Shown here in pieces: positions 9,722 through 63,175 of a stretch of DNA of 64,000 nucleotides. Position numbers and translations under genes: made by a program. Source of the DNA: Meghimatium bilineatum (taxonomy: Eukaryota > Mollusca > Gastropoda > Stylommatophora > Philomycidae); assembly GCA_034231615.1 (NCBI GenBank), contig CM067317.1:2910801-2974800 (forward strand), read 5' to 3'. The number at the start of each line of letters is the position of its first letter. Within the stretch, counting starts at the first letter, position 1. The notes under the pieces are model-generated. The model ran no database searches and was not told where the DNA came from. It was given only the letters and a program-made list of their open reading frames with translations.

Positions 9722-10165
9722 GAGGGTACATAGTAGGGTACATAGTGGAGCACATACTAGGGTACATAGTTGAGTACATACTAGGGTACATACTGGGGTA
9801 CATACTAGGGTACATAGTGGAGTACATACTAGGGTACACTCTGAGTACATAATGGAGTACATACTGGGGTACATACTGAAGTACATACTGGGGTACACAC
9901 TGGATACATAATGAAGTACATACTGGGGTACATACTGAAGTACATACTGGGGTACACACTGGGTACATAATGAAGTACATACTAGGGTACATAGTGGAGT
10001 ACATACTAGGGTACATACTGAGTACATAATGGAGTACATACTGGGGTACACACTGGGTACATAATGAAGTACATACTAGGGTACATACTGAAGTACATAC
10101 TGGGGTACATACTGAAGTACATACTGGGGTACACACTAGAGTATATCCTGGAGTACATACTGGAC
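9722..10165. repeat. GTACATACTGGG-type minisatellite abutting LINE E
   Basis: About 30 short units of roughly 15 bp built on GGGTACATACTGRAGTACAT, with C-A-C and T-A-G variants. The array ends exactly where the LINE E frame at 10168 begins. Translated in the LINE sense, the last unit reads like the Y-L-G-S-T motif that precedes L-D-D-E-V in this LINE family, so the unit may be amplified LINE code. Confidence 0.9.
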
Positions 10166-10167
10166 TT

Positions 10168-10345
10168 GATGATGAAGTGTATACAAGAATCACCAAAGCA
10201 AGCAGCACTTTCAGCAGATTGTACGCAAATGTTTGGCATAGAGATGGTATTAGCCTACAAACTAAACTGAAAGTGAACAGAGCAGCAGTATTTCTAGTGA
10301 TGTTATGCACTAATGAAACATGGACTGTGTCTAGACGTCACGTGA
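10168..10345 (+). pseudogene. RTE-like LINE, family E, short internal fragment
   Basis: In one frame: LDDEVYTRITKASSTFSRLY, ANVWHRDGISLQTKLKVNRA and NETWTVSRRHVRSC. This is the thumb/connection segment of the E-T-W-T-V-x-x-R-H LINE group, directly downstream of where Y-L-G-S-T should be. It ends without a C-terminus. Same family as 2864-3475 and 31330-31575. Confidence 0.78.
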
Positions 10346-10599
10346 GAAGTTGTAATTTTATAATAATAGTAGCAATAATAATTACTCATGATTCTTCTTC
10401 TATTGTTGAGTTATTCCACACGGACATGAAAAGTAATATCAACTTTGGAAGGGGGTGGAGGATGGGGGTTGGCATTTAAAAAATATTTAAAAATTTAGTT
10501 TTTGATGACCTTCTTGTGTGAAAAAAATTGATAAATTCACAGTATTTGTGTTACAGTGGTAGATGGAGGGACAATGTTTGCATTTTGTACTTGTTTGAT

Positions 10600-11035
10600 A
10601 GTGCTAAATATTATATCTTACCTCAAGGAAACGTGGACACTAACTGAAGAACAGGAGAGAAAGCTTACTAGATGTGAAATGAGATGTCTAAGAAAAACAG
10701 CAAACAGAAGAGCTCGTGCGCGGAATGAAGAGATGACAAGAACTGTTGAAACAACGTCTGTAGTCAAATATATTGAAAAACAAAGACTGTAACGGTTTGA
10801 CCACCTAACGAGAATGAAACCTTATTGAACAGCGGCAAGAGCATACAACATGAAAAGGGAGCACAAAGAGGCAGAGGAAGACCAAGAAGATGGATTGAAG
10901 GAGTTACCAACATTCTGACACGGCACAGTATTACTGCATATCAAGAAACCAAACGTGTCATATCTCAAACACCGATCGTCATTCACTCGTGCGGAGCCTC
11001 ACGGCAAAAGCAGAGAAAATACAATAGATAGAATA
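10600..11035 (+). pseudogene. RTE-like LINE, family D2, C-terminal fragment
   Basis: LKETWTLTEEQERKLTRCEM, RCLRKTANRRARARNEEM and VVKYIEKQRL, then a stop and a shifted frame with FDHLTRM, YNMKRE, a G-R-P-R-R-W-I-E-G-V-T stretch (two frames) and HSITAYQETK. The same family is at 45345-45770. 5'-truncated and frameshifted. Confidence 0.8.
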
Positions 11036-11284
11036 TACCCCCGGATGGTAAGGGTTAGGGGAGTTAATCATGTTATCCTTCCATCCATCTTCTATGTATC
11101 TGTGTCTTGAGTGTCGAGAGGGGGGGGGGGAGCACACAAAAACACACATTCACAAATTCCATTCAACAATGATTTTTCACACAAATATCTGGAAACATTG
11201 ATGCCAGTAATTCTGCTTAAAGTTGTTATTCCACTATTGATCACGCAATCATTTATAACACGATTACTGGATCAATTCCACAAT

Positions 11285-11384
11285 ATAAACAACAGTATAA
11301 ACGATGAGATATAAACAACAGTATAAACGATGAGATATAAACAACAGTATAAACGATGAGATATAAACAACAGTATAAACGATG
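11285..11384. repeat. 26-bp tandem repeat, about 4 copies
   Basis: Unit ATAAACAACAGTATAAACGA followed by TGAGAT. Copies start at 11285, 11311, 11337 and 11363 and are identical, so very recent. Confidence 0.92.
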
Positions 11385-11604
11385 CACATTGAATTTAAAA
11401 TGATAAAAAAATAACATATCATTTAGCACTCACATAAAAATAAATAATTATTGCAACGTGTCCCTGTCATTTTCCTAAAATAACTCAACGAGATACAAAT
11501 TTGAATTATTAATTGTTACTTTTGCTAGACGTTTCTAATTAATATATTTGTATCGTTTACCTATTGAACATCGTGATAAGTAAATGAAAAACAAAACAAT
11601 AAAA

Positions 11605-12182
11605 AAGAATTTATGAGAATTAGCAAGTCTGCAACACCAATTAATATAGCAATATATGACACCAAAGTAAAACAAACCAAAGAATTAAAATATCTAGGCA
11701 TCATTTTTTTCCCCGAAAATGGACGACTAAACAGAGAATTAGACACAAATATTCAGAAAGCATGCAGAGTAACTTACCGACTTTCACCATTATTTATTCA
11801 CCCAAAGATATAGATGAAAATTTAAAAATAAATAAATAATATCTATAATTTTTATACAAACACTCTGCTACCAATGTCAGACATGGTCTAAACAGTCTCG
11901 CACTAAAGGAAAAATCATTACGTGTGAAATGAAGTGTCTGAGAAAAGCTGCAATGGTTACTAAACTAGACAAAATAAGGAATGAAGAAATTAGAGAAAAG
12001 ATTAGGTAATAATATCATGTATTGAACATATCGAAAGACAGTAAGTAAAATGGTTCGGTCACCTTATGAGAATGAACCCAAATCAAATACCAATAAGAAC
12101 ATATAACAAACGAATATCCGGATATAGAACCAAATGTAGACCAAGAAAAAGGCGGATGGAGAACGTCTGGATAACCCTGAAG
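11605..12182 (+). pseudogene. RTE-like LINE, family D, C-terminal fragment
   Basis: MRISKSATPINIAIYDTKVK then ELKYLGIIF and NRELDTNIQKACRVTYRLSP. After frame changes come CYQCQTWS-like, MKCLRKAA-like and IEHIERQ, KWFGHLMRMNPNQIPIRTYN and the R-P-R-K-R-R tail. The F-G-H-L-M-R-M-N/D-P signature is shared with 28205-28529, 58060-58350 and 61445-61870. The 3' end stops at 12182, where an oppositely oriented LINE piece follows. Confidence 0.8.
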
Positions 12183-12234
12183 TAATATGAACTCAACACA
12201 TCTGTCCGTGGAACGACAATTTGTAATGGCAAAT

Positions 12235-12350
12235 GCTGTGCTAGTTTCCACACCAAATTCATCTTCTAGAGTTTTTATTATGTCTGTTGTTATGATGTCA
12301 GAGCCTGTGGCCTTTGTTACATTATTTAATGTCCATTCATTGCTACAATC
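12235..12350 (-). pseudogene. LINE RT N-terminal linker fragment
   Basis: The minus strand reads WTLNNVTKATGSDIITTDII then KTLEDEFGVET, the L-K-N-G-K-A-x-G-x-D-x-I linker found just before the RT fingers in RTE-like LINEs. Only about 35 residues are recognisable. It sits head-to-head with the D fragment on its left. Confidence 0.55.
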
Positions 12351-12632
12351 TGTGATTCATGGATATATTTTATTTGTCAGCAATATTTGAATCAAGATAG
12401 AACGTATTAACTTGAATTATTTGAAATCTGATAATGAACCCACGCCAGATTACTTCTATCTGTACATAGGAAGCTGTCTGCATAAATCAAGCTCATCAAT
12501 GAAAGGAGATTATAAAACGTGCTGGGTTGGATTTGCCACGAACTACTTGGATTTTGCCTAAGCTTGTACATACTGTTGGTGAGGGGGTGGGTGAAACTCA
12601 ACCGTACTGTAGAGAAATAGTAGTTGTATTTA

Positions 12633-12738
12633 ACGTAGAGCACAGGTTTTTGATGTTTCACTTGAACACAACAGGCGGACTATCACTAAGAGTAAAGGGT
12701 TATGAGGTATAAACACGAAAACAGGCAAATTACAATAC
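12633..12738 (+). repeat. left arm of ~105-bp inverted repeat
   Basis: Pairs with 13824-13932 at roughly 90% identity by eye; shared blocks include TTTTTGATGTTTCACTTGAA and ACACAACAG, then GGACTATCACTAAGA. Loop about 1.1 kb, containing the PLE GIY-YIG frame. Confidence 0.9.
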
Positions 12739-12965
12739 ACAAGACAGCAATTTTCAACGTTTCGGTCTTTCTCAAGAAAATATAAAACAAACAGTGAAAA
12801 ATAATAAAAACAGTAAAAACAATGTTACCACCACAGAGGCACTAGATACACTATTAACATGTAAAAAATACAAATTTCAAGGCGACAATGGTATATGGAA
12901 ACATGTAGTCGTGGAAGCTGGAAGTGTGGAAAATTGAACGGGATGCGACAACAGATATAACAAAT

Positions 12966-13133: not shown

Positions 13134-13221
13134 TAAGGACCGCACCAACACAAATTTTAACAGATGAATTTTCGGAAGTCCAAAAGACTTGAGTGTACTA
13201 AACTAAAAAATAAATCGATTC

Positions 13222-13800
13222 TCAAGGATTATACCTAGATATGTCATCCATGGTGCAAGATATGAGGGCAGTGACCTGGATATTGGGGGCAATATGGGCC
13301 ATGGTGCAGGATATGAGGGCAGTGACCTGGATATTGGGGGCAATATGATGACCGTCACCATTGAAATGAATGACGACAGGGGTATGTTGTCTGTGTTTTA
13401 TGGCATGGATATGTCTACAGAAGCCGTCACTCAATCTCAAGCCCGTTTCACCTATATAGTTCTTGTCACAAAGTTTACATACGATAACTACATAGAGACA
13501 TGTGTAGCAACGATCGCGTTTGCAGCAAATAGTGCCAAAATTAACCGGAACATAAGACCTGAGGTGAATGTGGACCAAGATGTCATTAAGATTTTTGTCA
13601 CGCCTATAGGCAACCAAAGGAAAGTCATGGAAAGTGGCACGAGTTTCAGAATCAAACTGGAGATGGGAATAATGCTTGAACAAGATTCAACGGACGGTAG
13701 AGTTATGGAGATGAAAAATAAGGATAAGTTAAACTCTATCAGAGGAGGACGAAGTACACTGAGTATTAGTCAAGGTATCAAATCGAGATAACTTACGGAC
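13222..13800 (-). pseudogene. PLE GIY-YIG endonuclease domain (partial ORF)
   Basis: The minus strand from about 13690 downward reads FKHYSHLQFDSETRATFHDF, then PLVAYRRDKNLNDILVH, CCKRDRCYTCLYVV, CKLCDKNYIGETGLRLSD and CRHIHAIKHRQHTPVVIHFN. The C-x2-C then x-Y-I-G-E-T-G-R/L-x-L core is the GIY-YIG nuclease signature of Penelope-like retroelements, with the preceding C-K-x-x-R-C-x-x-C linker. The frame is open for 153 residues from the first in-window Met-type codon but lacks the RT. Its C-terminus carries a perfect in-frame 51-bp duplication (13249-13348). Confidence 0.82.
13249..13348 (-). repeat. in-frame 51-bp tandem duplication inside the PLE ORF
   Basis: The segment encoding HIAPNIQVTALISCTM plus one linker residue occurs twice in succession. 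The copies differ by one base (CAAGATATG versus CAGGATATG). The reading frame is kept. Confidence 0.92.
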
Positions 13801-13823
13801 ACGAAGCCATTCCGATGAAATTT

Positions 13824-20891: not shown

Positions 20892-22156
<1,265 letters not shown>

Positions 22157-23189: not shown

Positions 23190-23720
23190 TATATTCGTGC
23201 TAGGGCATGTGGGTGTTGAAGGCAAAGAGCGAGCCGATGCACTGGCAATCATGGTCACAGTTTCAACAGTTACATCAAAAATGGATCGATCTAACATTGC
23301 GAACGCGTTAAGATTTTCAAAATTGTGAATCATGGTCACTCCTAAGACTTGGGTTTGTGTGAAGATCAAAACATCATGTAAAGAGAAACACATACGAAGA
23401 GACTGACATATCAGCATCGAGCTGAGAAACACATACGAAGAGACTGACCTATCAGCATCGAGCTGAGAAACACATACGAAGAGACTGACCTATCAGCATC
23501 GAGCTGAGAAACACGTTCGAAGAGACTGACATATCAGCATCGAGCTGAGAAACACATACGAAGAGACTGACCTATCAGCATCGAGCTGAGAAACACATAC
23601 GAAGAGACTGACATATCAGCATCGAGCTGTACCTGTCAGTCACTACACTCCGAATGGATTTACTGAGACGGGGAACGAGCACCTATCAGCTTGTCAATTG
23701 TGCACAATACTGCAGTCATA
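23190..23720 (+). pseudogene. I-like LINE: RNase H end and distal C-terminus, with internal array
   Basis: LGHVGVEGKERADALAI is the G-H-x-G-x-x-G-N-E-x-A-D-x-L-A motif of RNase H domains in non-LTR ORF2. It is followed by KMDRSNIANALR. After the 41-bp array, KHIRRLTYQHRAVPVSVTTL and RMDLLRRGTSTYQLVNC resume the family's distal region. The related minus-strand copy at 42925-43350 reads M-D-R-A-D-I-L-N-S-L-R-D, GGRRRMMVNQHRTGTVSRSV and LKERTEQLLMCPVC at the same places. The array is therefore an insertion of duplicated code. Confidence 0.82.
23383..23628 (+). repeat. 41-bp minisatellite (6 copies) made from LINE code
   Basis: Unit GAGAAACACATACGAAGAGA then CTGACCTATCAGCATCGAGCT. In the LINE frame it reads EKHIRRLTYQHRA, the equivalent of R-R-R-M-M-V-N-Q-H-R-T-G in 42925-43350. 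Copies start at 23383, 23424, 23465 and 23506 and at the same spacing beyond. As 41 is not a multiple of 3, the frame is lost after each unit. Confidence 0.92.
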
Positions 23721-24650: not shown

Positions 24651-25055
24651 TTTGAAAACAATTAAAGTTGTGTGAGGATAGGGGAATGGCGCGAGGTGTA
24701 GGAGCGGGTAGGGTGTTGCCAGATTTTGTGTTTGCTACTAGTATTAAATGTAATGTTTTGACTTCCTAAGAGGTCAAACCCCCAACCACACCCTTTCTTT
24801 ACCAGGTTGATAAACGCACTATGACTATATCCAGATACAGTCCAGGTTGATCATATTAATCATTGGTTGGACAGCAGTAAAACTGTCTTCCAAAAGATGT
24901 GAACGGAGACTGAAGTTTTCCAGTCCCCCCTCCCCCTTTACACACACAACCATTAAATATGACGAAAGAAAATATAGCCAACAATGTGACACATTTTAGA
25001 TTAATTCCACTTCTCGACTAAAACGCTAATATATATATATTAAGATATTAAGATA
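24651..25055. other. no recognisable feature
   Basis: Short C-runs and a (TA)n near 25030; no domain. Confidence 0.4.
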
Positions 25056-25059
25056 TATT

Positions 25060-27045
25060 AAGAGCAACTAGAAAATGTAAACAACTTTTAATATCTAGGA
25101 TCAACTATAAACACCACAGGAGATTGCTCGGCAGAGATAAGAGATTAGCAATGGCACTGCAAAAAAAACATCAGAGGAAAAATCTATAGCAAGAAGCAAA
25201 CAGAAAAACAAAGTTACAACTACTAAGTAACTATTTCTTTCCAATGGCAACATACGGTTGTCAGACGTGGGCAATAACATCGACAATGTACAGAAATTAT
25301 CTGCATTCGAAATGAAATGCTATAGAAAGGTCCTAAGAGTATCATGGACAGAAGAAAGAACTAACGCAGATGTCAGCAAAGATCTGAACATAGAAGAAGA
25401 CTGACTCCTCAAAACTATCAAAACACGCAAACTGACATATTTCAGACATATAAAACACACAAACTGACATATTTCAGACATATAAAACACACAAACTGAC
25501 ATATTTCAGACATATAAAACACACAAACTGACATATTTCAGACATATAAAAACACAAACTGACATATTTCAGACATATAAAAAAACAAACTGACATATTT
25601 CAGACATATAAAAACACAAACTGACATATTTCAGACATATAAAAACGCAAACTGACATATTTCAGACATATAAAAACGCAAACTGACATATTTCAGACAT
25701 ATAAAAACACAAACTGACATATTTCAGACATATAAAAACACAGACATATTTCAGACATATAAAAACACAAACTGACATATTTCAGACATATAAAAACACA
25801 AACTGACATATTTCAGACATATAAAAACACAAACTGACATATTTCAGACATATAAAAACACAAACTGACATATTTCAGACATATAAAAACACAAACTGAC
25901 ATATTTCAGACATATAAAAACACAAACTGACATATTTCAGACATATAAAAACACAAACTGACATATTTCAGACATATAAAAACACAAACTGACATATTTC
26001 AGACATATAAAAACACAAACTGACATATTTCAGACATATAAAAACACAAACTGACATATTTCAGACATATAAAAACACAAACTGACATATTTCAGACATA
26101 TAAAAACACAAACTGACATATTTCAGACATATAAAAACACAAACTGACATATTTCAGACATATAAAAACACAAACTGACATATTTCAGACATATAAAAAC
26201 ACAAACTGACATATTTCAGACATATAAAAACACAAACTGACATATTTCAGACATATAAAACACAAACTGACATATTTCAGACATATAAAAACACAAACTG
26301 ACATATTTCAGACATATAAAAACACAAACTGACATATTTCAGACATATAAAAACACAAACTGACATATTTCAGACATATAAAAACACAAACTGACATATT
26401 TCAGACATATAAAAACACAAACTGACATATTTCAGACATATAAAAACACAAACTGACATATTTCAGACATATAAAAACACAAACTGACATATTTCAGACA
26501 TATAAAAACACAAGCTGACATATTTCAGACATATAAAAACACAAACTGACATATTTCAGACATATAAAAACACAAACTGACATATTTCAGACATATAAAA
26601 ACACAAACTGACATATTTCAGACATATAAAAACACAAACTGACATATTTCAGACATATAAAACACACAAACTGACATATTTCAGACATATAAAACACACA
26701 AACTGACATATTTCAGACATATAAAACACACAAACTGACATATTTCAGACATATAAAAACACAAACTGACATATTTCAGACATATAAAAACACAAACTGA
26801 CATATTTCAGACATATAAAAACACAAACTGACATATTTCAGACATATAAAAACACACAATGGTTTGGAAAGATTAATCATGGAGGGGAAAGTTCCAGGGG
26901 AGAGAACAAGAGGCAGACCAAGACTACGTTGGATACAGGATATCGAAGACCTTCTGAACATGACACTGGAAGAAGCTGGGCAGCTAGAAAACAACCGTGA
27001 GGTGGCAGTGAGGACAACGTTCTGTAAAGGACACGTCGCATAGAG
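25060..27045 (+). pseudogene. RTE/BovB-like LINE, family K, C-terminal half with 1.4-kb internal array
   Basis: Left of the array: STINTTGDCSAEI-like and VTTTK-like stretches, then ASTMYRNYLHSK-region frame FEMKCYRKVLRVSWTEERT, NADVSKDLNIEED and LLKTIKTRKLTYFRHIK. Right of the array: GLERLIMEGKVPGERTRGRP, RLRWIQDIEDLLNMTLEEAG and FCKGHVA before the stop. Removing the array joins the halves exactly as in the family K copy at 4402-5625. Without it the fragment is only about 550 bp. Stops upstream make it inactive. Confidence 0.88.
25426..26858 (+). repeat. 31-bp minisatellite, about 46 copies, amplified from the LINE ORF
   Basis: Unit AAACTGACATATTTCAGACA followed by TATAAAAACAC. The first unit is the LINE sequence encoding K-L-T-Y-F-R-H-I-K, the conserved K-L-x-Y-F-G-H-I/V-K motif of this family. 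Edge units have ACACAC or lack one A; central units are almost identical, as expected of recent expansion from the middle. Confidence 0.97.
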
Positions 27046-27235
27046 AGTGATATATCAAGTGACATATTCTTTACAGAATGTTGTCTTCGTCGTGGATACT
27101 CTGCACCCCTCTCTGTTCCGGACAAGCAGGCCTGCATTGGTCAGAAAGATGTTCATACATTCTTCAATGTCGCCGGTCCTTTTCTTGGTCTTCCTCTTCT
27201 TCTCTTACCCGGCACTCTGCCGGCCATTAAAAAAT
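27046..27235 (-). pseudogene. RTE-like LINE, family F, 3' end, tail-to-tail with K
   Basis: The minus strand reads FNGRQSAG, a K-K-R-K-T-K-K-R-T stretch, DIEECMNIFLTNAGLLVRNR and TTKTTFCKEYVT before the stop. F and K are relatives (T-T-F-C-K-x-x-V-A/T ends). The two 3' ends meet head-on at about 27045 and form a hairpin. Confidence 0.75.
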
Positions 27236-28204: not shown

Positions 28205-28529
28205 ATAGACTTGGAGAGATCAAGTGGTTTGGTCATATTATGAGAATGCATCACGACAAGTTGCCTGACAAGGTGCCTGACAAGGTGCCTGACAAGGTGC
28301 CTGACAAGGTGCCTGTACAGGCATATAATCAAATAAGAACATGGTACAAAGCTAGAGGAAGAAAACAAAAAAAGATGGATAGAAATTGTCACGGATACCT
28401 TGAACAAACACGGTCATAGCACTGTCGAGGCGACACATCTGGCATTGGAACACAAGCTTGAGTTCCAATCACCTCTACGTTTAACGGCAAGAGTGGATAA
28501 CAAGCCACCTGAGGAAAGACAATAGACAA
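28205..28529 (+). pseudogene. LINE family D, C-terminus, nested in C
   Basis: IKWFGHIMRMHHDKLP, then four extra D-K-V-P units, VQAYNQIRTWYKARGRKQK, a frameshift, TDTLNKHGHSTVEATHLALE, a L-T-A-R-V-D-N-K-P-P end and an ACAATAGACAATAGATA tail. The tail (GACAATAGATA)n also ends the D copies at 61445 and 45770. Flanking AGATA is a weak candidate TSD. Confidence 0.83.
28255..28314 (+). repeat. 12-bp in-frame minisatellite inside LINE D
   Basis: GACAAGTTGCCT once, then GACAAGGTGCCT four times. It encodes D-K-L-P(D-K-V-P)4 directly after F-G-H-I-M-R-M-H-H. Other D copies have a single N-Q-I-P or H-Q-L-P here. Confidence 0.93.
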
Positions 28530-29802: not shown

Positions 29803-30073
29803 TACCGTATACAGTCTTCGCAGTCTTTACTTCCCGAATTAATCCGGTACCCATTTAAGGCTGGGTCGACCTGGGAGCCGTTGCGATCTGAAAACATTTC
29901 CGCTTCAGCTGGGGAATGAACCACTCATATGCGAAGCCAGTGCACTGCGAGGGAGAGGAGATGGCTACCGCCCTCATTTGCAGAGCCTGTGAAATGTGAG
30001 ATCGCTAACATCTCACACCCCTACGGCATTAATAAATGCTATGGGTTACTTTACTTTTTTTTACCGTATACAG
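29803..30073 (+). mobile_element. SINE S2 copy with inverted 5' half (twin-priming structure)
   Basis: 29819-29945 is the S2 head and middle in reverse orientation (CGCAGTCTTTAC ... GGTACCCATTTAAGGCTG ... CAGCTGGGGAATGAACCACT). 29946-30061 is the S2 3' half in forward orientation (GGGAGAGGAGATGGCTACCG ... ACATCTCACACCCCTACGGC ... GGTTACTTTACTTTTTTT). Both halves end with GCG at the breakpoint. TACCGTATACAG flanks the whole at 29803-29814 and 30062-30073. The intact S2 at 35082-35347 shows the normal order. Confidence 0.88.
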
Positions 30074-30765: not shown

Positions 30766-30813
30766 CTTATAGAGGTCATGAATACATATTCCGCTTAGCA
30801 CCACATTCATAGA

Positions 30814-31328
30814 TACAAGTCATGGAACCATATCCTGCCGATGTCGGATGAAATCATATATACAAGTCATGGAACCATATCTTGCTGATGTCGGATGAGA
30901 TCATATATACAAGTCATGGAACCATATCATGCTGATGTCGGATGAGATCATATATATATACAAGTCATGGAACCATATCTTGCCGATGTCGGATGAAATC
31001 ATATATACAAGTCATGGAACCATATCATGCTTATGTCGGATGAGATCATATATACAAGTCATGGAACCATATCCTGCCGATGTCGGATGAAATTATATAT
31101 ACAAGTCATGGAACCATATCTTGCCGATGTCGGATGAGCATATTTACAAGTCATGGAACCATATCCTGCCGATGTCGGATGGAATTATATATACAAGTCA
31201 TGGAACCATATCTTGCCGATGTCGGATGAGATCATATATACAAGTCATGGAACCATATCCTGCCGATGTCGGATGAGATCATATATACAAGTCATGGAAC
31301 CATATCCTGTTGATGTCGGGTGAGATCA
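30814..31328 (+). repeat. 47-bp minisatellite, about 11 copies
   Basis: Unit TACAAGTCATGGAACCATAT then CYTGCCGATGTCGGATGARATCATATA. In one + frame it reads SWNHILPMSDEI, resembling the R-W-x-G-H-V-x-R-M-x-D-E-R segment of LINE E. The LINE E frame starts right after the last unit. Confidence 0.93.
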
Positions 31329-31329
31329 T

Positions 31330-31575
31330 AGATTCGAAAAGCTGGTGGACATATAAAGCGCTTCAAAGACACGCTCACGTCATCACTGAAACATCTAAAC
31401 ATTGACGTAGGCTCTTGAGATAGCCTCGCTCAGGAAAAAAAACAGCATGGCGTTACATCATTAGAACGGGAGCACTATCGGCGGATGAGCCCAGACAAGA
31501 TACTGCAAGACAGAAGCGGACACGTAGAAAAGAAAAAAAACACCTCTACGTCCCAAAGACACCCTCTACAGTTGT
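31330..31575 (+). pseudogene. LINE family E, C-terminal fragment
   Basis: KAGGHIKRFKDTLTSSLKHL, NIDVGS, then a stop and frames with GVTSLEREHYRRMSPDKI and LQDRSGHVEKKKN. K-R-x-K-D-T-L-K-x-S-L-K is the conserved stretch of E-family LINEs. It is joined on the left to the 47-bp array. Confidence 0.75.
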
Positions 31576-31730
31576 CAATTATGTAGTAGAACATTTTGTG
31601 CGCGCATTGGACTTGTTAGTCATTTAAAAACGCACTATTAACTTTATTATTTGTATTACTTATTGTTATTATCATTATGGTTGAGTTATGGTCATCGTCG
31701 ATTACGACGGACAAACATCATCATCAGATA

Positions 31731-32025
31731 ACGAGAAACGACCTGTTTAGCTTGTACATGTATTGAGAAACGACTTGTTTAGCTTGGACATGTATCGAGA
31801 AACGACTTTGTTTAGCTTGGACATGTAACGAGAAACGACCTGTTTAGTTTGTACATGTATTGAGAAACGACTTGTTTAGCTTAGACATGTATCGAGAAAC
31901 GACTTTGTTTAGCTTGGACATGTAACGAGAAACGACTTGTTTAGCTTGGACATGTATCGAGAAACGACTTGTTTAGCTTGGACATGTATCTAGAAACGAC
32001 TTGTTTAGCTTGCACATGTATCGAG
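31731..32025 (+). repeat. 32/33-bp minisatellite, 9 copies, amplified from the LINE ORF
   Basis: Unit CTTGGACATGTATCGAGAAA then CGACTTGTTTAG. In one frame it reads L-G-H-V-S-R-N-D, the F-G-H-V-S-R motif of this LINE's C-terminus. The last unit leads straight into the rest of that C-terminus. Confidence 0.93.
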
Positions 32026-32235
32026 AAAAATGATTCTATAATTATTTTGCAAGAAACAGTCGAGAGTAAAAGGAGACTAGGAGGCCAGAAAAAATCTTGG
32101 ATTGATAACAACAAGAAATACCCTGGCCGTGATTTCTCTACACCATTCCAAATGGTTGAGGATAGAGATACATGGACAGATTTTTGTGCTGATGTCTCCA
32201 GTGTGGTACCCCTACGACCCTGATGTATCCAATGT
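32026..32235 (+). pseudogene. LINE C-terminus (ADVSS-ending group)
   Basis: EKNDSIIILQETVESKRRLG, GQKKSWIDNNKKYPGRDFST and VEDRDTWTDFCADVSSVVPL, then R-P and a stop. Families ending in A-D-V-S-S-G/V-x-P are common in marine invertebrate genomes (established knowledge). The fragment is short but has no stop. Confidence 0.82.
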
Positions 32236-32342
32236 GGTATCCCTACGACACTGATGTCTCCAGTGTGGTACTCCTACGACTCTGATATCTCAAGTGTGGT
32301 ACGCCTAGGTCCCTGATGTCTCCAGTGTGGTACCCCTACGAC
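32195..32342 (+). repeat. 31-bp tandem repeat, 5 copies, from the LINE 3' end
   Basis: Unit CTGATGTCTCCAGTGTGGTA then CCCCTACGACC encodes A-D-V-S-S-V-V-P-L-R-P in the first copy, i.e. the LINE stop region. Later copies are diverged and out of frame. Confidence 0.9.
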
Positions 32343-32679
32343 CATGACGATTATTATTAATATCATTATTATTATTCTAAAGTTCTAAAACCTGCAAGTA
32401 CTTGTATTCGAAGGTCTGTACTCATCTCTCAATGCCTGCAGTAAGTTCATACAACACAAAAGATCGAATTTTTAAAAATCGATACAATCGTGTCTCTATT
32501 CGAACACCGGTGCCACTTTAAAAAAAAAACTCATTTACAACATCACACAAAATATCTTAGAATTATCTATAAAAACTACATTAGTACTACAAAGGATAAC
32601 AGTTCCTTGTGTCATCCGTGGTAACCACACAAAAAACACCCCCCCCCAAAAAAAAAAAACAACAGAATATTGGCAAAAC
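32343..32679. other. no gene; poly-C/poly-A at 32638-32660
   Basis: (ATT)n near 32350-32375 and homopolymers; nothing else. Confidence 0.4.
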
Positions 32680-33188: not shown

Positions 33189-33287
33189 ATGTATCTCTTT
33201 GTCTTCCTTTGTGTCTTGTCCCTTTCTAGTGGTTATTATTGGACTGGATGTTTAACAATTGATGAAAAAAGTTGTGTTGCAGCATAG
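33189..33287 (+). CDS. candidate 32-residue secreted peptide or signal exon (weak)
   Basis: ATG at 33189 opens a 32-codon frame, MYLFVFLCVLSLSSGYYWTG then CLTIDEKSCVAA. Residues 2-14 form a signal-peptide-like hydrophobic core with a small-residue exit (S-L-S-S-G), followed by two cysteines. Just upstream, TTCTTTTTGTGCCACAG looks like a splice acceptor. The last part (ATTGGACTGGATGTTTAACAATTGAT) is repeated at 33393-33418, and no polyadenylation signal or donor is evident. It may be chance in T-rich DNA or a small toxin-like or neuropeptide exon; I cannot decide. Confidence 0.2.
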   Translation: MYLFVFLCVLSLSSGYYWTGCLTIDEKSCVAA

Positions 33288-34704
33288 ACGCGTCACCAGT
33301 TGTTGTGTAGCAGCGTAAACAAGTCATCAATTGTTGCATCGTATCACAAACCCAAGATGATTTAAAACAAACCGCTCTATACATGCCAAATATTGGACTG
33401 GATGTTTAACAATTGATCGCAGAAGGAGTAGAAGGGTGAAGCATACTTTGCCTTACTGGTGATATATGATACGTCTCTCCTGAAATATTTTTATCAAGTT
33501 GCACCTGCATACCTGTGCAACGTAGTTATTTATTGAAATCAAATTATCGCCCTGAAAGTTATATTCTATGATTTTTAAATGAGAATACCTAAATTCCCAT
33601 CCAACATTAATTTGGAAATATGGATCAAATTGAAACTTCTGTTGAAATATGCAGACAACTGGAGACGACTGTACAGTATTAAAAGTGGTAAGAATGAAAC
33701 ATGAAACGTAGCAAAAATAAGCAGAAACAGTTATGTCCAGAAAATGTACTGGGTTGTATTGTATAAGTTCTGTAGGTCAGTTGTTAATGAATATGAAAAT
33801 ATTCAAGAGACAAACAAATAATAAAGAACTGTAGACACCCACTGAATGTTGCTGTCACGTTGAAGAATAGGACCTACATTTGAAAAACCATGTCGCAGAA
33901 TGAATGTCACAAAAACTAATAATAAATTTGACAATAATACTCGGCTCGAACGACTAAATCTATACATATATTCAAGGAAGAACGTAAATATAAAAATAAA
34001 CATTGTTACAGGGTGAATTCAACTAAATATGAAACATACAACAGATCGAATTGAAAGATAATTATGTACTAACACTGAAGAATAGTAAAATAAAACCAAA
34101 ATATGATAATGAAAAACGCATAGATGGCGTGGGATTTTCGTGGAATGAAAATCTTTGTGTGTTTGTAAGATTTGAAGATAACTAGAAAATACGTATTGAT
34201 GTCACATGATACGGTAACGAAATCAGAGACTGACGCAAATAGATCTTTCCAATACGGATGAATTGGCAAAGAAATATGCCAGACACGTAAGAGTGGGATG
34301 CAAGATTAAAAATAATACATTTACATAAAATGAAACACAATATGTATTTTTATTTTACCAGAATGTACATGTTTTATTACAGTTGGGAAAAATACAGAGC
34401 GTCAGACAAATGAAGATTATGTCAGCAAAAAACATTAAAATTTAAAGTTTACTTTATTGTAGCGAAATCTGGCATATATGCAAATGAATGAATATGCCAG
34501 ACAAGCAGTGCATTACCACTGTTTTTTGTGTGTGTGTTTGTTCTTTAGCTTTGAATTTATGGCCTCTGAAAGTTATGCAATACGAACATTTCGGAAATAA
34601 TGAATAAGCGATATTTTAGTGCCGTTATTAATTTTCTGTTCTTTTGGTGAATCTATTGCTTTTCTAATATTTTTAATGCTCTTAGAGCATTTTATAAATC
34701 TATC
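33288..34704. other. no recognisable gene
   Basis: AT-rich. A 26-bp segment at 33238-33263 is repeated at 33393-33418. No LINE, SINE or domain similarity seen. Confidence 0.45.
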
Positions 34705-35081: not shown

Positions 35082-35347
35082 ATGGGATCCGCGTTAGCGC
35101 AGTGGTTAGCGCACTGCCTTCACATATGAGTGGTCCTGGGTCCATTCCCAGCTGAGGCGGAAATGTTTTTAGATCGCAACGGCTCCCAGGTTGACTCAGC
35201 CTTAAATGGGTACCGGATTAATCCGGGACGTAAAGACTGCGTGGGAGAGGAGATGGCTACGGCCCTCATTTGCAGAGCCTGTGAAATGTGAGATCGCTAA
35301 CATCTCACACCCCTACGGCATTAATAAATGCGACAGGTTACTTTACT
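35082..35347 (+). mobile_element. intact tRNA-derived SINE S2 with perfect TSD
   Basis: Flanked by TACGATGCATAT at 35070-35081 and 35348-35359. The head has A-box TAGCGCAGTGGTTAGCG (about 35095-35111) and B-box GGGTCCATTCC (35138-35148). The body contains GGTACCGGATTAATCCGG and ACATCTCACACCCCTACGGC, and it ends GGTTACTTTACTT. Full-length with an unmutated TSD, so a young insertion. The rearranged copy at 29803-30073 is the same family. Confidence 0.93.
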
Positions 35348-35399: not shown

Positions 35400-35720
35400 T
35401 GTAATTCTTGTATGTTGTTGCTGCCCATAGTCAACCACAAAACTGTGTGTGTCATGTGACATATTCTCTCCAATACGTTGTCTTCCCAATGAGCTCTCTG
35501 AACACTGCTCTGTCTTGGGCCACTCGGCTTGAATTTTCCAAGGATATATTCATGCTATCTTTAATATTGTTAGTCCATCGTTTTCTTGTACCGCCCCTTC
35601 TCCTTTCCCTCCCAGGTGGTCTTTCCTCCATAATTTGTCTGTCTAAACAGTAGTTTCTCTTGTTATGTCCAAAATGTGTAGATAGTTTTCCTATTGCTAT
35701 TGTATTTAGCAATCAACCCT
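35400..35720 (-). pseudogene. LINE family F, C-terminus, nearly intact frame
   Basis: The minus strand reads GKLSTHFGHNKRNYCLDRQI, MEERPPGRERRRGGTRKRW, TNNIKDSMNISLENSSRVAQ and DRAVFRELIGKTTYWREYVT before the stop. This is the FGH-x-K-R ... R-P-P-G-R ... V-A-Q-D-R-A order of the RTE C-terminus, related to K and to 27046-27235. The upstream side runs into the 42-bp array at 35687-35820. Confidence 0.83.
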
Positions 35721-35820
35721 CTGCCAGCTTCAATATTGCTATTTTATTTAGTAATCAACACTCCGCCAGCTTCAATATTGCTACTGTATTTAGCAATCAA
35801 CCCTCTGCCAGCTTCACTTG
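35687..35820 (-). repeat. 42-bp tandem repeat (3 copies) from LINE F code
   Basis: Minus-strand unit AAGCTGGCAGAGGGTTGATT then GCTAAATACAATAGCAATAG reads K-L-A-E-G-x-L-L-N-T-I-A-I. The last copy continues as K-L-S-T-H-F-G-H in the LINE. L-L-x-T-I-x-x-x-K-L is the segment preceding F-G-H in this group. Confidence 0.88.
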
Positions 35821-36976
35821 TACAACACTGTAGATATATTTATTAACGAAAGAACTAGTTATGCCCTCTTTGATGGTACCTATTTTAATACTTGTTATGC
35901 CAGTCTGTTTTCATTCATTCTAAGTATATGTCCGATATAAGTCCATTGTTTTCTTCTTATTGTTGTAGAAACATATTGCTGTTTTGCGTCTTCTTTTATT
36001 TGCATGTTTGACTTCAATTCTTCCCAACCAAATATTTATTAGTTTTCTAAGACATTTATTTTCAAAGGAATTTAATGTATTCTCTAGTGTTTTTGTTATT
36101 TTACAATTTTCACAACAATTTGTCAATACAGATATAACATTGGAGATAAATAGTCGTATTTTGGCATATGTACTTATTTTTGATTTCCAGATGTTTGTTA
36201 GGTGATTGAACGCATTTGCTATGAATCAATATACAAGATCTATCTAGTGTTTCTTTCTGTTTTTTGCGATTGACATTACCTCAGTTTTGTGTGTGTTTAT
36301 CTTCATGTTAAAGTCCCTACATTTTGTGTGGAGTCTATATTATGTTGTAGTTGTTCCTATGATGTTGATATTATTGCTTTATCACCTGCAAAAAAGAAGT
36401 TCGCTCACGAGGTTTTTTTTATATTGTCTTCTTCATTATTTTTGGCAATTTTACATAAACAATCGATATGTGTGATGAATAGCAAGGTAGATAAGACACA
36501 TCATTGTCGCACTCAATTGTGTATGTGGAGTTTGCCTGAAAGACCACCACTCGTTCTAACTGCGCATTGACTTCATGTGTAACTACTGCACAGGTTGATT
36601 AGGTGTTGTGGGACTCTGTATTTTGATAATATTTTCCATACTTGTTGTCTGTCTCCTCTGTCGAATGCTTTTTCTTGGTTGACAAACGTGATATACAGTT
36701 CTTGGTTGTTTTCCGTGGTTTTTTATGTCATTTTCTGAGTGTAAAAATTGCATCTGTACAGCTCTTGTTCTTACGAAATCCCATGTGAGTGTTGTTAAGT
36801 TGTGGTTCGATGAATACTTGTAATCTTCTTTCTAGAATGAAAATGTTTCCAGTGTGGCTTAGAGGTCAGATTTTTCTGTTTTTGTACCATCTCTTATTCT
36901 GTCTTTTTTCTTCCAAATATGTATTATTACAGCGTTCGCCAGTCTTCTGGTGTTTCTAGTGTATTCCATATTATGT

Positions 36977-38660: not shown

Positions 38661-38850
38661 CATTTGTACCACATGTACATTTGTACCACATGTACATTTG
38701 TACCACATGCACATTTGTACCACATGCACATTTGTACCACATGTACATTTGTACCACATGCACATTTGTACCACATGTACATTTGTACCACATGTACATT
38801 TGTACCACATGTACATTTCTACCACATGTACATTTGTACCACATGTACAT
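38661..38850 (-). repeat. 17-bp minisatellite, about 11 copies, inside the LINE G endonuclease
   Basis: Minus-strand unit CACATGTACATGTGGTACAAA (17-bp period; T/C variation GTACAT/GTGCAT). The upstream flank encodes NTFFKHRESHMYMWYK and the downstream flank HMYMWYKWNDLNCKSQ, so the unit is the H-M-Y-x-W-Y-K codons of the EEP endonuclease, expanded in place. Confidence 0.95.
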
Positions 38851-39248: not shown

Positions 39249-40185
<937 letters not shown>

Positions 40186-40327
40186 TAATGTCCTGCGCTG
40201 TTACGGGATCAATTATAAATGCGATGCCGTGCTTGACTCGTAAATTTGGACCAACTCCTGAGTAAAGTAAAGCTACGCCAATCTTGAGTGCGACGCCAGT
40301 CAGATCTGTACTGAGCCACTCACCAAA

Positions 40328-41025
40328 ATGAATGTTTCTATTGAACTGGGTGATAACTTAAGTGTATCAATCAATATTTCTATTGAATTGAGTGATAACC
40401 TAAGTGTATCAATCAATATTTCTATTGAATTGGGTGATAACTTAAGTGTATCAATCAATATTTCTATTGAATTGGGTGATAAATTAAGTGTATCAATCAA
40501 TATTTCTATTGAAATGAGTGATAACTTAAGTGTATCAATCAATATTTCTATTGAATTGAGTGATAACTTAAGTGTATCAATCAATATTTCTATTGAATTG
40601 GGTGATAAATTAAGTGTATCAATCAATATTTCTATTGAAATGAGTGATAACTTAAGTGTATCAATCAATATTTCTATTGAATTGGGTGATAACTTAAGTG
40701 TATCAATCAATATTTCTATTGAATTGAGTGATAAATCAATCAATATTTCTATTGAATTGAGTGATAAATCAATCAATATTTCTATTGAATTGAGTGATAA
40801 CCTAAGTGTATCAATCAATATTTCTATTGAATTGGGTGATAAATTAAGTGTATCAATCAATATTTCTATTAATGAGTGATAACTTAAGTGTATCAATCAA
40901 TATTTCTATTGAATTGGGTGATAACATAAGTGTATCAATCAATATTTCTATTGAATTTGATGATAACTTAAGTGTATCAATCAATATTTCTATTGAATTG
41001 GGTGATAAATTAAGTGTATCAATCA
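40328..41025. repeat. 42-bp minisatellite, about 17 copies
   Basis: Unit TGATAACTTAAGTGTATCAA then TCAATATTTCTATTGAATTGRG, with two shortened 30-bp units at about 40732-40790. It abuts the 5' (right) end of LINE G. In the G sense it reads I-E-I-L-I-D-T-L-K-L-S-P-N-S, which could derive from the endonuclease N-terminus (uncertain). Open frames on both strands are artefacts. Confidence 0.95.
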
Positions 41026-41084
41026 AAAGCCTCTTCTGTCCTCATGATTTCGAGAATTGAATAAAGAGTTCTCCATACAACAGT

Positions 41085-42924: not shown

Positions 42925-43350
42925 ACATAGTTAGTTAGTTAGTTAGTTAGTCGTCGGATCATCATCACTGCAAACTGGACACATCAATAGTTGCTCCGTT
43001 CTCTCCTTGAGTGTATCCGCCATCACACTTCTGCTGACAGTACCGGTCCTATGCTGGTTGACCATCATTCTTCTGCGCCCTCCAAAATGTTCACCTCTAG
43101 CAACACCGCATCTCAATCCCTGATCTTTAATCCTAGCCATTGAAAAGGAATCATCATCCACATTCGTCTCACTCTCGCGTGTTATATCTCTTAAGGAGTT
43201 CAAAATGTCAGCGCGATCCATTGCCCCATCGCCCTTTGCCACAATCGCACACGATGCCAGTTGATCCGCTCTTTCATTTGACATAATATTACCCACAGAC
43301 ATAATTTGGCTAGATGTAGGGCAGTGTAGCATGAAACTAAATATATTAGA
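42925..43350 (-). pseudogene. I-like LINE, RNase H end to 3' tail
   Basis: The minus strand reads MSNERADQLASCAIVAKGDG (RNase H N-E-R-A-D-x-L-A), AMDRADILNSLRDI, ESETNVDDDSFSMARIKDQG, ARGEHFGGRRRMMVNQHRTG, TVSRSVMADTLKERTEQLLM and CPVCSDDD, then (ACTA)n at 42929-42948. One frame is open over about 125 codons. It is the reference for the array-bearing relative at 23190-23720. Confidence 0.85.
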
Positions 43351-43382
43351 ATTTTTTGGGCAAATATTTGTATGTTTATATA

Positions 43383-43735
43383 GCATTAGAATGTATTTGA
43401 GATGTGGATATATATCAATCGAATGCCATAGATATGTGGATATATAGCAATCGAATGCCATAGATATGTGGATATATAGCAATCGAATGCCATAGATATG
43501 TGGATATATAGCATTAGAATGTATTTGAGATGTGGATATATAGCAATCGAATGCCATAGATATGTGGATATATAGCAATCGAATGCCATAGATATGTGGA
43601 TATATAGCAATCGAATGCCATAGATATGTGGATATATATCAATCAAATGCCATAGATATGTGGATATATAGCAATCGAATGCCATAGATATGTGGATATA
43701 TAGCATTAGAATGAATTTGAGATGTGGATATATAG
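43383..43735 (+). repeat. 32-bp minisatellite, 11 copies, amplified from LINE C code
   Basis: Two unit types, TGTGGATATATAGCAATCGA+ATGCCATAGATA and TGTGGATATATAGCATTAGA+ATGTATTTGAGA. The final ATTTGAGATGTGGATATATAGA reads F-E-M-W-I-Y-R and continues as the LINE C sequence. C-family code here is F-E-M-W-V-Y-R-R (7130-7160). Confidence 0.95.
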
Positions 43736-52020: not shown

Positions 52021-52024
52021 TACA

Positions 52025-55420: not shown

Positions 55421-55592
<172 letters not shown>

Positions 55593-56305: not shown

Positions 56306-56310
56306 CTTAC

Positions 56311-59954: not shown

Positions 59955-60262
59955 ATGAAATTAGTGTACCGAAAATCTTCTTGTAATGAAATTAGTGTAC
60001 CGAAAATCTTCTTGTAATGAAGTTAGTGTACCGAAAATCTTCTTGTAATGAAGTTAGTGTACCGAAAATCTTCTTGTAATGAAATTAGTGTACCGAAAAT
60101 CTTCTTGTAATGAAATTAGTGTACCGAAAATCTTCTTGTAATGAAATTAGTGTACCGAAAATCTTCTTGTAATGAAGTTAGTGTACCGAAAATCTTCTTG
60201 TAATGAAATTAGTGTATCGAAAATCTTCTTGTAATGAAATTAGTGTACCGAGAATCTTCTTG
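59955..60262. repeat. 31-bp minisatellite, 10 copies
   Basis: Unit TGAAATTAGTGTACCGAAAA then TCTTCTTGTAA with AAATT/AAGTT variants. Confidence 0.95.
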
Positions 60263-60375
60263 TTGATGTCAACTTTTGCCAACCTCACTCCCCCTTATCT
60301 ACTACTATCAAATATTGACAGGCCCCTAATCCTTTAATTGTTGTAATTGATGTAATGGACAGCCCCTCACAAACA
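60263..60375. mobile_element. MITE M1, right end only
   Basis: GTTGATGTCAAC interior motif and right end (minus) GGGGCTGTCCATTACATCAA. The left end is not found; the 31-bp array may have grown inside or beside the element. Confidence 0.5.
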
Positions 60376-60434
60376 TTTATCTTCCTATGTTTTAGATAAA
60401 TCGTCTGCAACACTTGAATTCGAAGACATATGTG

Positions 60435-61140
60435 TCAGTGCTAGAGAATAATTCAACATGAAGATGGATATTGAAAAGACAGGAATAATGACAATAGCAA
60501 AGAAAGAAAGAAGTATCCCTATCTCCATCAGATAAACACCTTAAACGGGTAAAGGAGTTCACTTACTTAGGAAGCATTATATCGAGGGAAGGGAAAAACA
60601 GTAAAGAGATACAAAATATATGCAACAATACATACCAGATCCTAGGACAGATGGCACGTATTTTCAAGAACAAAAATGTAAACATAGACACTAAAGTTGC
60701 ATTATACAAGACTTTTATTATTCCATCACTATGCCACCAGTGCCAAACCTGGACAATGACAGCACAAGACAAAAGAAAAATAGTGACAGTAGAAATTACA
60801 TGTCTACGAAGAATACTCGGAGTGTCATTAAGAGATAGAATTAGAAACGATAACATCAGACAGATAACTAACACAATACCAGTATTGGAACACATCAAAA
60901 GACAACAGATTAAGTGTTTTCACACGCTTCCAGACTACCGACATATAGCATGCTACAAATGGCAATGACACATAGACATAACGGTTATAAAGCCAGAGGC
61001 AGACCATGTAAAAGATAGATTACAGAAATGAAAGAAGCCACAGGAACAAGCTTACACACAGCGCACAAGAAGATCATCTCCAGAGAACTCTTCTATTCCT
61101 GACGCCACAAGGGAAATAAGAGCCACAACGTATAGATATA
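60435..61140 (+). mobile_element. LINE family A copy 5, minimal tail
   Basis: Damaged N-part, then MARIFKNKNVNIDTKVALYK, TFIIPSLCHQCQTWTMTAQD, KRKIVTVEITCLRRILGVSL, RDRIRNDNIRQITNTIPVLE; shifted GYKARGRPCKR and the end ELFYS. The 3' UTR TGACGCCACAAGGGAAATAA + GAGCCACAACGTATAGATAT has about two GATA-like units. Confidence 0.87.
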
Positions 61141-61444
61141 GTTCATATAATGGTAGGTTTAGGAGGTTCAATTCCTCCCCTTCCCCCGTAGCAAATATGA
61201 ACATGACTTTTAGTAGGCTACTGGGAACTTAGCCAAAAGGTGGACCAAGAACCAAGCAACACCCCCCCCCACCCTTCTGATTTTTCACAAATGGTCATCA
61301 AATTTTCCATTACAATGAGTAATTGACACACAAAAGCGCAACGATAACCTTTTCCCCCCTTTAGGTAGACATTCCCCCGCCCTGCAGTTTGAAACCCAAT
61401 ATCTACGGCCTTGTCTTGTCGTTCTACAAGTTTGCGGCGAGTGT
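61141..61444. other. no recognisable feature; poly-C at 61261-61270
   Basis: Nothing else seen. Confidence 0.4.
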
Positions 61445-61870
61445 CCAACTTTCTATCTGTATCTATTGTCTATACCCCAGGTGGAAGCTGGTTGATAGCA
61501 TCCGCACGTGCCGTTAAGCGTAGGGTTGGGAGCTGTACGGTTCAAGGCCAGGTGTGATGCCTCAGTCGTACTGAGTCTAGGTTTGTGGAGGGTGGTCGTG
61601 ATGTTATCGATCCATCTCTTTCTCAGTCTTCCCTTGGTTCTGTATCCAGCTGATCGTTTGTTATAAACTCTCAGTGGTAATTGGTGGGGGTCCATTCTCA
61701 CAAGGTGACCAAACTACTTTATCTGCTGACGTTCTATATATTCGATACGAGGCATCACCCCTACTCTTTTACTGATATCCTCGTTTCCTACTCTATCCAA
61801 TTTGGTGACCATAGCAGCTTTTCTCAAACACTTCATCTCACATGTGATGCTTTTTTGTCTGCTGTGAGGT
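61445..61870 (-). pseudogene. LINE family D, C-terminus
   Basis: Minus: MRMDPHQLPLRVYNKRSAGY, RTKGRLRKRWIDNITTTLHK, STTEASHLALNRTAPNPTLN and GTCGCYQPASTWG, then the GACAATAGATACAGATAG tail at 61445-61475. The upstream part is frameshifted (K-C-F-R-K-A-A-M-V-T equivalents). Confidence 0.82.
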
Positions 61871-62214
61871 TATTAAAGACCATGTTTGGCGCTGATAACA
61901 AAGTGTCATACATTAAGCAAACAACATAGGGCCTATGCCTAATAAAAAACACTTGTGGGTGAGTTATACATTCGGATTTTCATTCAAAACAGAACTGATG
62001 TCACTTTTTGTATGAAATATTTCGCTTCCACACAGTAGATAAGGCTATTTCCAACATAATCTGGAATACAGTTTTATATTTTCCATCGCTGCATATACAG
62101 GGTACGAGATATTTGAACAAGTATTTGCCTCCTCGAGTTTATAACCATTCATGAAAATGTTGGACTAAACGTCTGTTTCTCTGCTGTTAACCAATATATC
62201 AGTAGTATGCACCC
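61871..62214. other. no recognisable feature
   Basis: Plain AT-rich sequence. Confidence 0.4.
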
Positions 62215-62545
62215 ACTGAAACAAATCTGAAATCAAACAGGCGAAACTTCAAACAGGGTAATTAAATTTGGCTAATCCCTGGAAACAAACGCACACTTGA
62301 AACGACCAAAAGGCCTTTATCAAGAATACATACACAACAAAATACGACGAGAAAGAACGGCAAAATTGACGTTCACATTAATATTTAGCTCTGTCATGTG
62401 ACCGTCACCGTTCTTACTCGCCGTATTTTATTATGTATGTTTTCTTGATAAAGGCTGTTTGGTTGAAATGTTGATTTGTGTTATTGTGTGTGTTTTAGTA
62501 ATTAACAAGACTTCATTACCATGTTCCAACTGTCGCAAGTTAGCC
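62215..62545. mobile_element. hairpin element made of two inverted PLE-end-like repeats
   Basis: The left arm (about 62215-62372) and right arm (about 62395-62545) are imperfect inverted repeats of about 140 bp: GGTAATTAAATTTGG / GGTAATGAAGTCTTG, CAAAAGGCCTTTATCAAGAA / CAAACAGCCTTTATCAAGAA, AAAATACGACGAGAAAGAAC / AAAATACGGCGAGTAAGAAC. Each arm contains CTTGATAAAGGCYKTTTGGT then YGAAA. A single arm occurs at 46075-46200. Confidence 0.7.
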
Positions 62546-62579
62546 AATAGGGGACTACCTTTTTTTCAGTATTTATTTC

Positions 62580-63175
62580 CATTTTGTAGGCTTACTTGGT
62601 AATTTTATCTCCACTTTACTGTTAACTCTTGTGGTTCATGTTCGAACCCAGTTATAAGATCAATATCAGGGAAGCGCAAGTTTCCGATCTGGGCTACCGA
62701 TAGATACGTGTTGTAATCCGGCTACCGATAGATACGTGTTGTAATCCGCCTACCGATAGAGACGTGTTGTAATCCTGCTACCGATAGAGACGTGTTGTAA
62801 TCCGGCTACCGATAGAGACGTGTTGTAATCCGGCTACCGATAGATACGTGTTGTAATCCTGCTACCGATAGAGACGTGTTGTAATCCGGCTACCGATAGA
62901 GACGTGTTGTAATCCTGCTACCGACAGAGACGTGTTGTAATCCTGCTACCGATAGAGACGTGTTGTAATCCGGCTACCGATAGAGACGTGTTGTAATCCG
63001 GGCTACCGATAGAGACGTGTTGTAATCCTGCTACCGATAGAGACGTGTTGTAATCCGGCTACCGATAGAGACGTGTTGTAATCCGGGCTACCGATAGAGA
63101 CGTGTTGTAATCCTGAAGTGTCTCCTGTATGATGCGCTCTATGTATATGTTGAAAAGCAATGGAGGTTGGGCGTG
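62580..63175 (-). pseudogene. LINE RT palm fragment carrying a 28-bp array
   Basis: The minus strand from 63175 reads PPLLFNIYIERIIQETLQDY then NTSLSVAG, i.e. the S-P-L-L-F-N-I-Y-x-E-x-I-M-Q-E-T-L motif. Left of the array: AQIGNLRFPDIDLITGFEHE then PQELTVKWR, the N-L-R-F-A-D-D-I-D-L catalytic box (here F-P-D-I-D, mutated) and following helix. In intact relatives these are separated by about 12 residues; here by about 420 bp of repeats. Confidence 0.85.
62693..63113 (-). repeat. 28-bp minisatellite, 15 copies, inside the LINE RT
   Basis: Minus-strand unit GATTACAACACGTCTCTATC then GGTAGCCG reads D-Y-N-T-S-L-S-V-A, matching the D-H-H-T-S-I-S-I-G-G segment before the YADD box. Variants: T/C at one site, G/GG, AGA/AGT. 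Confidence 0.96.

What the first reader, a model, noticed from the sequence alone, without database searches (positions are those of the whole stretch)
9722..63113. LINE coding segments as founders of many minisatellites
At least nine arrays have units that are pieces of LINE ORF2 amplified in place, with the matching LINE protein continuing on one or both sides: 23383, 25426, 28255, 31731, 32195, 35687, 38661, 43383 and 62693; probable ones at 9722, 30814 and 40328. They come from different LINE families and strands. Several (25426, 28255, 31731, 35687, perhaps 30814) start in or beside the conserved F-G-H-x-x-R region. TE-internal tandem repeats are known in general, but so many independent cases in one window suggest a systematic process, such as replication slippage or break repair after insertion.
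Basis: partly seen in the sequence, partly recalled or inferred. Interest (0 to 1): 0.88.

Follow-up and report, generated by a model that had tools for sequence, protein, structure and literature searches.

The report
Minisatellites born inside LINE copies
Several tandem repeats in this animal DNA did grow in place from a single short piece of a jumping-gene (LINE) reading frame, but tandem repeats fill about a fifth of the DNA sampled and are not commoner in LINEs than chance, so LINEs look like ordinary soil for them rather than a special source.

Summary
Paralogous LINE copies in the same 1.6-Gb genome show the founder as a single copy for 6 of the 9 arrays listed as definite: 25421, 28255, 31729, 32189, 35692 and 62692. 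In two listed cases, 43377 and 30807, homology starts at or beyond the array end in 39 of 39 other scored copies. Arrays 23383, 38661, 9724 and 40327 remain unproven.

The inference of a LINE-directed process fails. Arrays make up 20% of the window and 24% of 140 kb of random genome (18% without one all-array locus). They touch LINE coding DNA no more often than pseudo-arrays: 10 of 45 against 11.8 in the window, 6 of 84 against 12.9 in random loci. FGH clustering is seen only in the window.

Best mechanism: chance duplication, often between short direct repeats already in the LINE, then local expansion. One site stands out: the family D 3' end has CTGATG twice, 31 bp apart, in its consensus. 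Its arrays come with periods 30, 31 and 38, and one type is shared in order by three copies, so I infer several foundings and one mobile lineage. All this is a known kind.

The parts
25421..26856 (+). 31-bp x46 array founded from one copy of the KLTYFGHI stretch of LINE family B (family letters are mine)
   Evidence: 37 of 39 other scored copies end after about one unit
25050..25420 (+). LINE family B left flank
26857..27060 (+). LINE family B right flank (C-terminal ORF2)
28255..28315 (+). 12-bp x5 array (DKVP) inside LINE family E, just after WFGHIMRM
   Evidence: 27 of 39 other copies show adjacent flanks without an array
31729..32028 (+). 32-bp x9 array; unit matches family D consensus positions 15-47 (FGH region)
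   Evidence: LINE on the right side only
32029..32188 (+). LINE family D C-terminal ORF2 between the two arrays
32189..32347 (+). 31-bp x5 array at the 3' end of family D ORF2 (ADVSSVVPLRP and stop); recurrent tandem site in the family, between CTGATG direct repeats of the consensus
35692..35816 (-). 42-bp x3 array; unit is the LLNTIAI stretch just before FGH of LINE family G
35450..35691 (-). LINE family G C-terminal part
35874..36218 (-). Different LINE (family F) on the other side of array 35692
62692..63113 (-). 28-bp x15 array inside a LINE RT palm segment (after PLLFNIYIERIIQETLQDYNTSLSV)
33271..33336 (-).
43377..43735 (+). 32-bp x11 array near a LINE on its right; unit not found in paralogues
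30807..31330 (+). 47-bp x11 array abutting a high-copy element on its right; homology starts at the array end in 39 of 39 other copies
   Evidence: element type not shown by any search
9724..10164 (+). Array with LINE coding on the right only; unit not tested
23383..23629 (+). 41-bp x6 array; left flank resembles the fragment at 42946-43296(-)
38661..38850 (-). 17-bp x11 array; LINE origin read by eye only, one weak panel match
40327..41026 (-). 42-bp x17 array; LINE origin not shown

Best explanation
These are ordinary TE-hosted minisatellites in a genome with a high minisatellite load. A LINE copy suffers a chance tandem duplication of 12-42 bp, often between two short direct repeats already present in its sequence. 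Slippage or unequal exchange then expands and homogenises the duplicate locally. LINE copies are hit no more often than other DNA; they only make the event readable, because paralogues preserve the single copy. Shown: the single-copy founder in paralogues for six arrays, a base change older than one array, short direct repeats at the period for several founders, and no excess in LINEs. Inferred: the enzymatic step (slippage, end joining or unequal exchange), and that at the 3' end of family D founding has recurred and one array lineage has been copied along with its element.
For: Single-copy founders in paralogues. Timing: 46 of 46 units of 25421 carry the changed base. Array density. No excess over pseudo-arrays: window 10 of 45 against 11.8 +- 3.0, random loci 6 of 84 against 12.9 +- 3.1, LINE-centred loci 12 of 67 against 21.3 +- 2.4. 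Direct repeats at the period: CTGATG, 31 bp (family D consensus; joint longest there with ATGGGT at 7 bp); GACATAT, 11 bp (L050 site, longest in the family B stretch); AAAAA, 31 bp (25421); ACT, 32 bp (31729); TAAT, 28 bp in L075 (62692). Unit types with periods 30, 31 and 38, and shared unit order in L061, L069 and L071.
Against: Direct repeats are weak for some founders: about 1 bp for 28255 (read from the sequences), 3 bp for L064 and 31729, undetermined for 35692. I made no formal test of repeat length against random breakpoints. Of the four single-copy family D elements fetched, only L065 keeps both CTGATG intact. In the window 5 of 45 arrays lie within 15 aa of FGH against 2.2 expected, and over all samples 11 of 196 lie at ORF2 C-termini against 5.8 expected, so some position effect remains possible. 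The panel covers only the late RT and C-terminal part; array 62692, for example, was not counted as a LINE contact. Array turnover may hide LINE flanks.
Confidence: 0.78

Rival explanations
1. LINE-specific process: ORF2, above all the FGHxxR region, is a preferred birthplace of minisatellites, through a fragile sequence or target-primed repair at insertion.
For: 5 of 45 window arrays within 15 aa of FGH against 2.2 expected. The family B site has three different duplications: 25421, L050 (11 bp) and L056 (19 bp).
Against: Outside the window 3 of 151 against 4.5 expected. LINE contact is at or below expectation in all three sample sets. A base change preceded the 25421 array. 62692 and 32189 are elsewhere in ORF2.
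Confidence: 0.1
2. Element-borne arrays: the tandem repeats belong to the LINE families and were spread by retrotransposition.
For: Family D 3' end: 22 of 40 scored copies have more than one unit. L061, L069 and L071 on three contigs share an ordered unit series. For 25421 and 35692, 2 of 39 other copies each run past one unit.
Against: Most scored paralogues of 25421 (37 of 39), 35692 (37 of 39), 28255 (27 of 39 informative) and 62692 (26 of 39 informative) show one unit. Family D copies WIN, L063 and L064 have different unit types. The family D query held two units, which favours array copies.
Confidence: 0.12
3. Coincidental neighbours: an element inserted beside an array, and unit similarity is read into it.
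For: Fits 43377 and 30807: homology starts at or beyond the array end in 39 of 39 other copies each.
Against: Not possible for 25421, 28255, 31729, 35692, 62692 and 32189, whose unit occurs once, contiguous with the element, in paralogues.
Confidence: 0.15

Closest known systems
TE-derived minisatellites of the human genome (PMC3389668, passages read)
   Same: Tandem arrays of a piece of a TE, many at single loci, with a group expected because the TE consensus itself holds a repeat (LTR12, L1PA). The paper finds flanking direct repeats of 5-20 bp for 300 of 7,276.
   Different: Here LINE ORF2 in a genome with about 20% tandem arrays in the samples. Paralogues give the founder directly. No excess in LINEs.
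Haber-Louis slippage model and Alu minisatellites of Jurka and Gentles (as described in PMC6947457 and PMC3389668, passages read; originals not read)
   Same: Duplication between short direct repeats, then expansion. The family D consensus and L050 fit.
   Different: Several founders here have only 1-3 bp of homology.
LINE ORF2-derived satellites PROsat, Pvc20 and HinfI (table in PMC9659126, passages read)
   Same: Units drawn wholly or partly from ORF2.
   Different: Those are satellite DNAs (larger families, as I recall). The six here are minisatellites of 12-42 bp units at LINE copies.

Membership tests
TE-derived minisatellite | Unit occurs once in TE paralogues lacking the array | tested here: met
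   6 of 12 listed arrays; not met for 43377 and 30807; 4 not settled
TE-derived minisatellite | TE sequence continues on both sides of the array | tested here: met
   25421, 28255 and 62692; one side only for 31729 and 35692; 32189 lies at the element's 3' end
TE-derived minisatellite | Array arose after insertion | tested here: inconclusive
   25421: changed base in 46 of 46 units, but one of 8 paralogues (L048) shares it; not tested by this mark for the others
Haber-Louis founder | Direct repeat of 5-10 bp at the period distance in the ancestral sequence | tested here: inconclusive
   6 bp family D consensus, 7 bp L050 site, 5 bp 25421, 4 bp 62692; 3 bp 31729 and L064; about 1 bp 28255
LINE-directed minisatellite process | More arrays in LINE coding DNA than in matched random placement | tested here: not met
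   at or below control in all three sample sets
LINE-directed minisatellite process | Units cluster at one ORF2 motif (FGHxxR) | tested here: not met
   8 of 196 against 6.7 expected over all samples; 5 of 45 against 2.2 in the window alone
Element-borne tandem repeat (LTR12/L1PA type) | Same ordered unit variants in copies at different places | tested here: met
   Only for L061, L069 and L071 of family D; not for the window's own array
LINE (non-LTR) ORF2 | RVT_1 domain | tested here: met
   RVT_1 in window ORFs 4510-4824 and 7444-7950 and in L037, family E. The C-terminal pieces that host most arrays were assigned by the homologue panel

The most novel reading that the evidence does not exclude
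Some LINE families carry a built-in minisatellite seed: a pair of short direct repeats at the ORF2 3' end (family D: CTGATG 31 bp apart, spanning the stop codon). This seed is re-founded independently in many copies, and a resulting array can become part of the mobile element. Such mobile nurseries could have supplied part of the roughly 20% minisatellite load of this genome.
Probability: 0.2. Interest if true: 0.65.

Novelty: new member of a known kind. Interest (0 to 1): 0.42.

Why it matters
How minisatellites start is largely unsolved; the human survey could account for only 6% of TE-derived cases (PMC3389668, passage read). A genome that combines high-copy LINEs with about 20% minisatellites lets founders be read off from paralogues. 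The length and place of direct repeats at birth then become measurable across many cases. The finding also warns that counts of TE-internal arrays must be compared with how much of the genome is TE.

Tried and rejected
Considered and rejected: a LINE-directed process; FGH as a general hotspot (seen in the window only). Insertion-time repair as the source of 25421 is made less likely, not excluded. Pfam at E up to 0.1 or 1 gave no above-threshold LINE domain for most C-terminal pieces tested (exception DUF6451 at its cut-off for 35923-36225). For the 40271-40876 ORF it listed many unrelated families, which I take as an artefact of the repetitive peptide. Paper searches (one search found none) gave general prior art.

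Solved-structure, fold, structure prediction, the search for related loci and annotated-record tools were not used.

L042 (one 10-kb array) was left out of the edge test, leaving 84 of 85 arrays. In the LINE-centred set (43 loci; the window's own copies L001, L009 and L045 left out) arrays inside the matched stretch were left out. Arrays with period under 10 were left out of edge tests. 67 of 251 panel proteins without a clear FGH anchor were left out. In one search the minus-strand loci were not turned, so only its plus-strand rows inform.
Full report
WHAT IS THERE. The window is G000:C20:2910801-2974800 of a 1.61-Gb assembly in 32 contigs. Homologues of its LINE C-terminus include proteins named from sea slugs (Elysia, Plakobranchus) and other animals. 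Tandem Repeats Finder lists 78 rows, which merge to 49 arrays covering 12,924 of 64,000 bases; 45 of these have periods of 10 or more. A panel of 251 LINE-related proteins marks 29.5% of the non-array bases of the window and 15.1% of those of 14 random loci as LINE coding.

FOUNDERS. I searched the own genome with array edges plus about one to two units (with a longer stretch). Each search scored only the 40 best candidates out of 1,068 to 7,486, so statements about other copies hold for those. Array 25421 has 46 units of 31 bp. 37 of 39 other copies end after about one unit and 2 run to the query end; both flanks continue in 6 of 7 aligned copies. Array 28255: 27 of 39 copies have the flanks adjacent. 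Array 35692: 37 of 39 copies end at about one unit, 2 run on; the LINE on its other side is a different family that begins at 35874. Array 62692: 26 of 39 copies end at one unit and 13 before it; L075 aligns on both sides, and the sequence encodes the RT palm. Array 31729: the unit matches a 32-base stretch of the family D consensus, which 20 of 39 copies hold once, nearly in full.

NEGATIVE CASES. For 43377 a LINE on the right is real, but homology starts 19 or more bases beyond the array in 39 of 39 other scored copies. For 30807 homology starts at the array end in 39 of 39; its neighbour is a high-copy element that my panel does not recognise as LINE. Origin of these units from the neighbour is not shown. 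For 23383, 38661, 9724 and 40327 I have only partial evidence.

FAMILY D 3' END. The 32189 unit is tandem in many copies: of 40 scored, 18 have one unit, 22 more, and 18 at least three. This is biased upwards because the query held two units. The consensus of four single-unit copies reads CTGATG, 25 bases, CTGATG; the two are 31 bases apart and are the joint longest direct repeat in that stretch. Among the four copies only L065 keeps both intact. The window copy (31 bp), L063 (30 bp), L064 (38 bp, taking in GGGTT) and the L061 group have different unit types. I infer three or four foundings; a 30-bp type could also be a homogenised deletion of a 31-bp one. L061, L069 and L071 on three contigs share an ordered series of unit variants, so I infer that this array moved with its element.

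MECHANISM. Direct repeats at the period distance: 6 bp (family D), 7 bp (L050 site), 5 bp (25421); 3 bp (31729; L064 type); 4 bp (62692, in L075); about 1 bp (28255). This is compatible with slippage or end joining and is not a formal test. All 46 units of 25421 carry a base change that 7 of 8 paralogues lack, L048 being the exception. So the change came before amplification.

IS IT SYSTEMATIC? In 14 random 10-kb loci arrays cover 23.8% of 140 kb, or 18% without L042, which is one single array (by hand). In 43 LINE-centred loci they cover 9.4%, which also speaks against a LINE source, though those loci were chosen for intact matches. Array edges in LINE were compared with pseudo-arrays (N blocks placed at random in the same masked sequence and re-annotated). 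Window: 10 of 45 against 11.8 +- 3.0 with LINE on either side, 2 against 5.5 on both. Random: 6 of 84 against 12.9 +- 3.1, and 2 against 4.9. LINE-centred: 12 of 67 against 21.3 +- 2.4, and 5 against 9.7. By place in ORF2 over 196 arrays: FGH +-15 aa 8 against 6.7; C-terminus (+45 aa or more) 11 against 5.8; rest of LINE 9 against 34.7 (sums by hand). So LINEs are not preferred and the body of ORF2 seems avoided, perhaps because copies that keep it are young. The C-terminal excess may reflect sites like that of family D.

WHAT IS KNOWN. TE-derived minisatellites, internal repeats carried by TEs, and the direct-repeat model are in print (PMC3389668, PMC6947457, PMC9659126; passages read, not the whole texts). 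I therefore file this as a new member of a known kind, useful as a test bed. On rechecking, 25421 and 35692 are less strictly private than I first wrote (2 of 39 copies each), and the post-insertion mark is softer; my odds did not need to change.

Noticed in passing
window 21857-22155 and 39483-40185: Long AGAT/ATAG microsatellites directly follow the 3' end of two copies of the LINE family at 21223-21822, as if a microsatellite tail belongs to that LINE.
   Followed up: partly
L039-L044 and L053-L060: The random sample of 140 kb is 23.8% tandem arrays (18% without L042), which I find a high minisatellite load for a 1.6-Gb genome.
   Followed up: partly
L042:5-10000: A whole 10-kb random locus is one array of a 93-bp unit, about 72 copies.
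   Followed up: no
window 13248-13347: A 51-bp in-frame duplication in an ORF (13225-13686, minus) that looks by eye like the GIY-YIG part of a Penelope-type element; Pfam gave no match above its cut-off.
   Followed up: partly
L036:1324-1480: 39-bp x4 array at the C-terminus of another family E LINE copy (LTARVDNKPPGES repeated), a second array in that family.
   Followed up: partly
L056:3449-3496 and L050:1490-1520: Different 19-bp and 11-bp duplications at the same family B site as array 25421.
   Followed up: partly
window 29920-30050 and about 35240-35330: Similar peptide (PSFAEPVKCEIANISHPYGINKC) at two places, perhaps a SINE-like dispersed repeat beside arrays.
   Followed up: no
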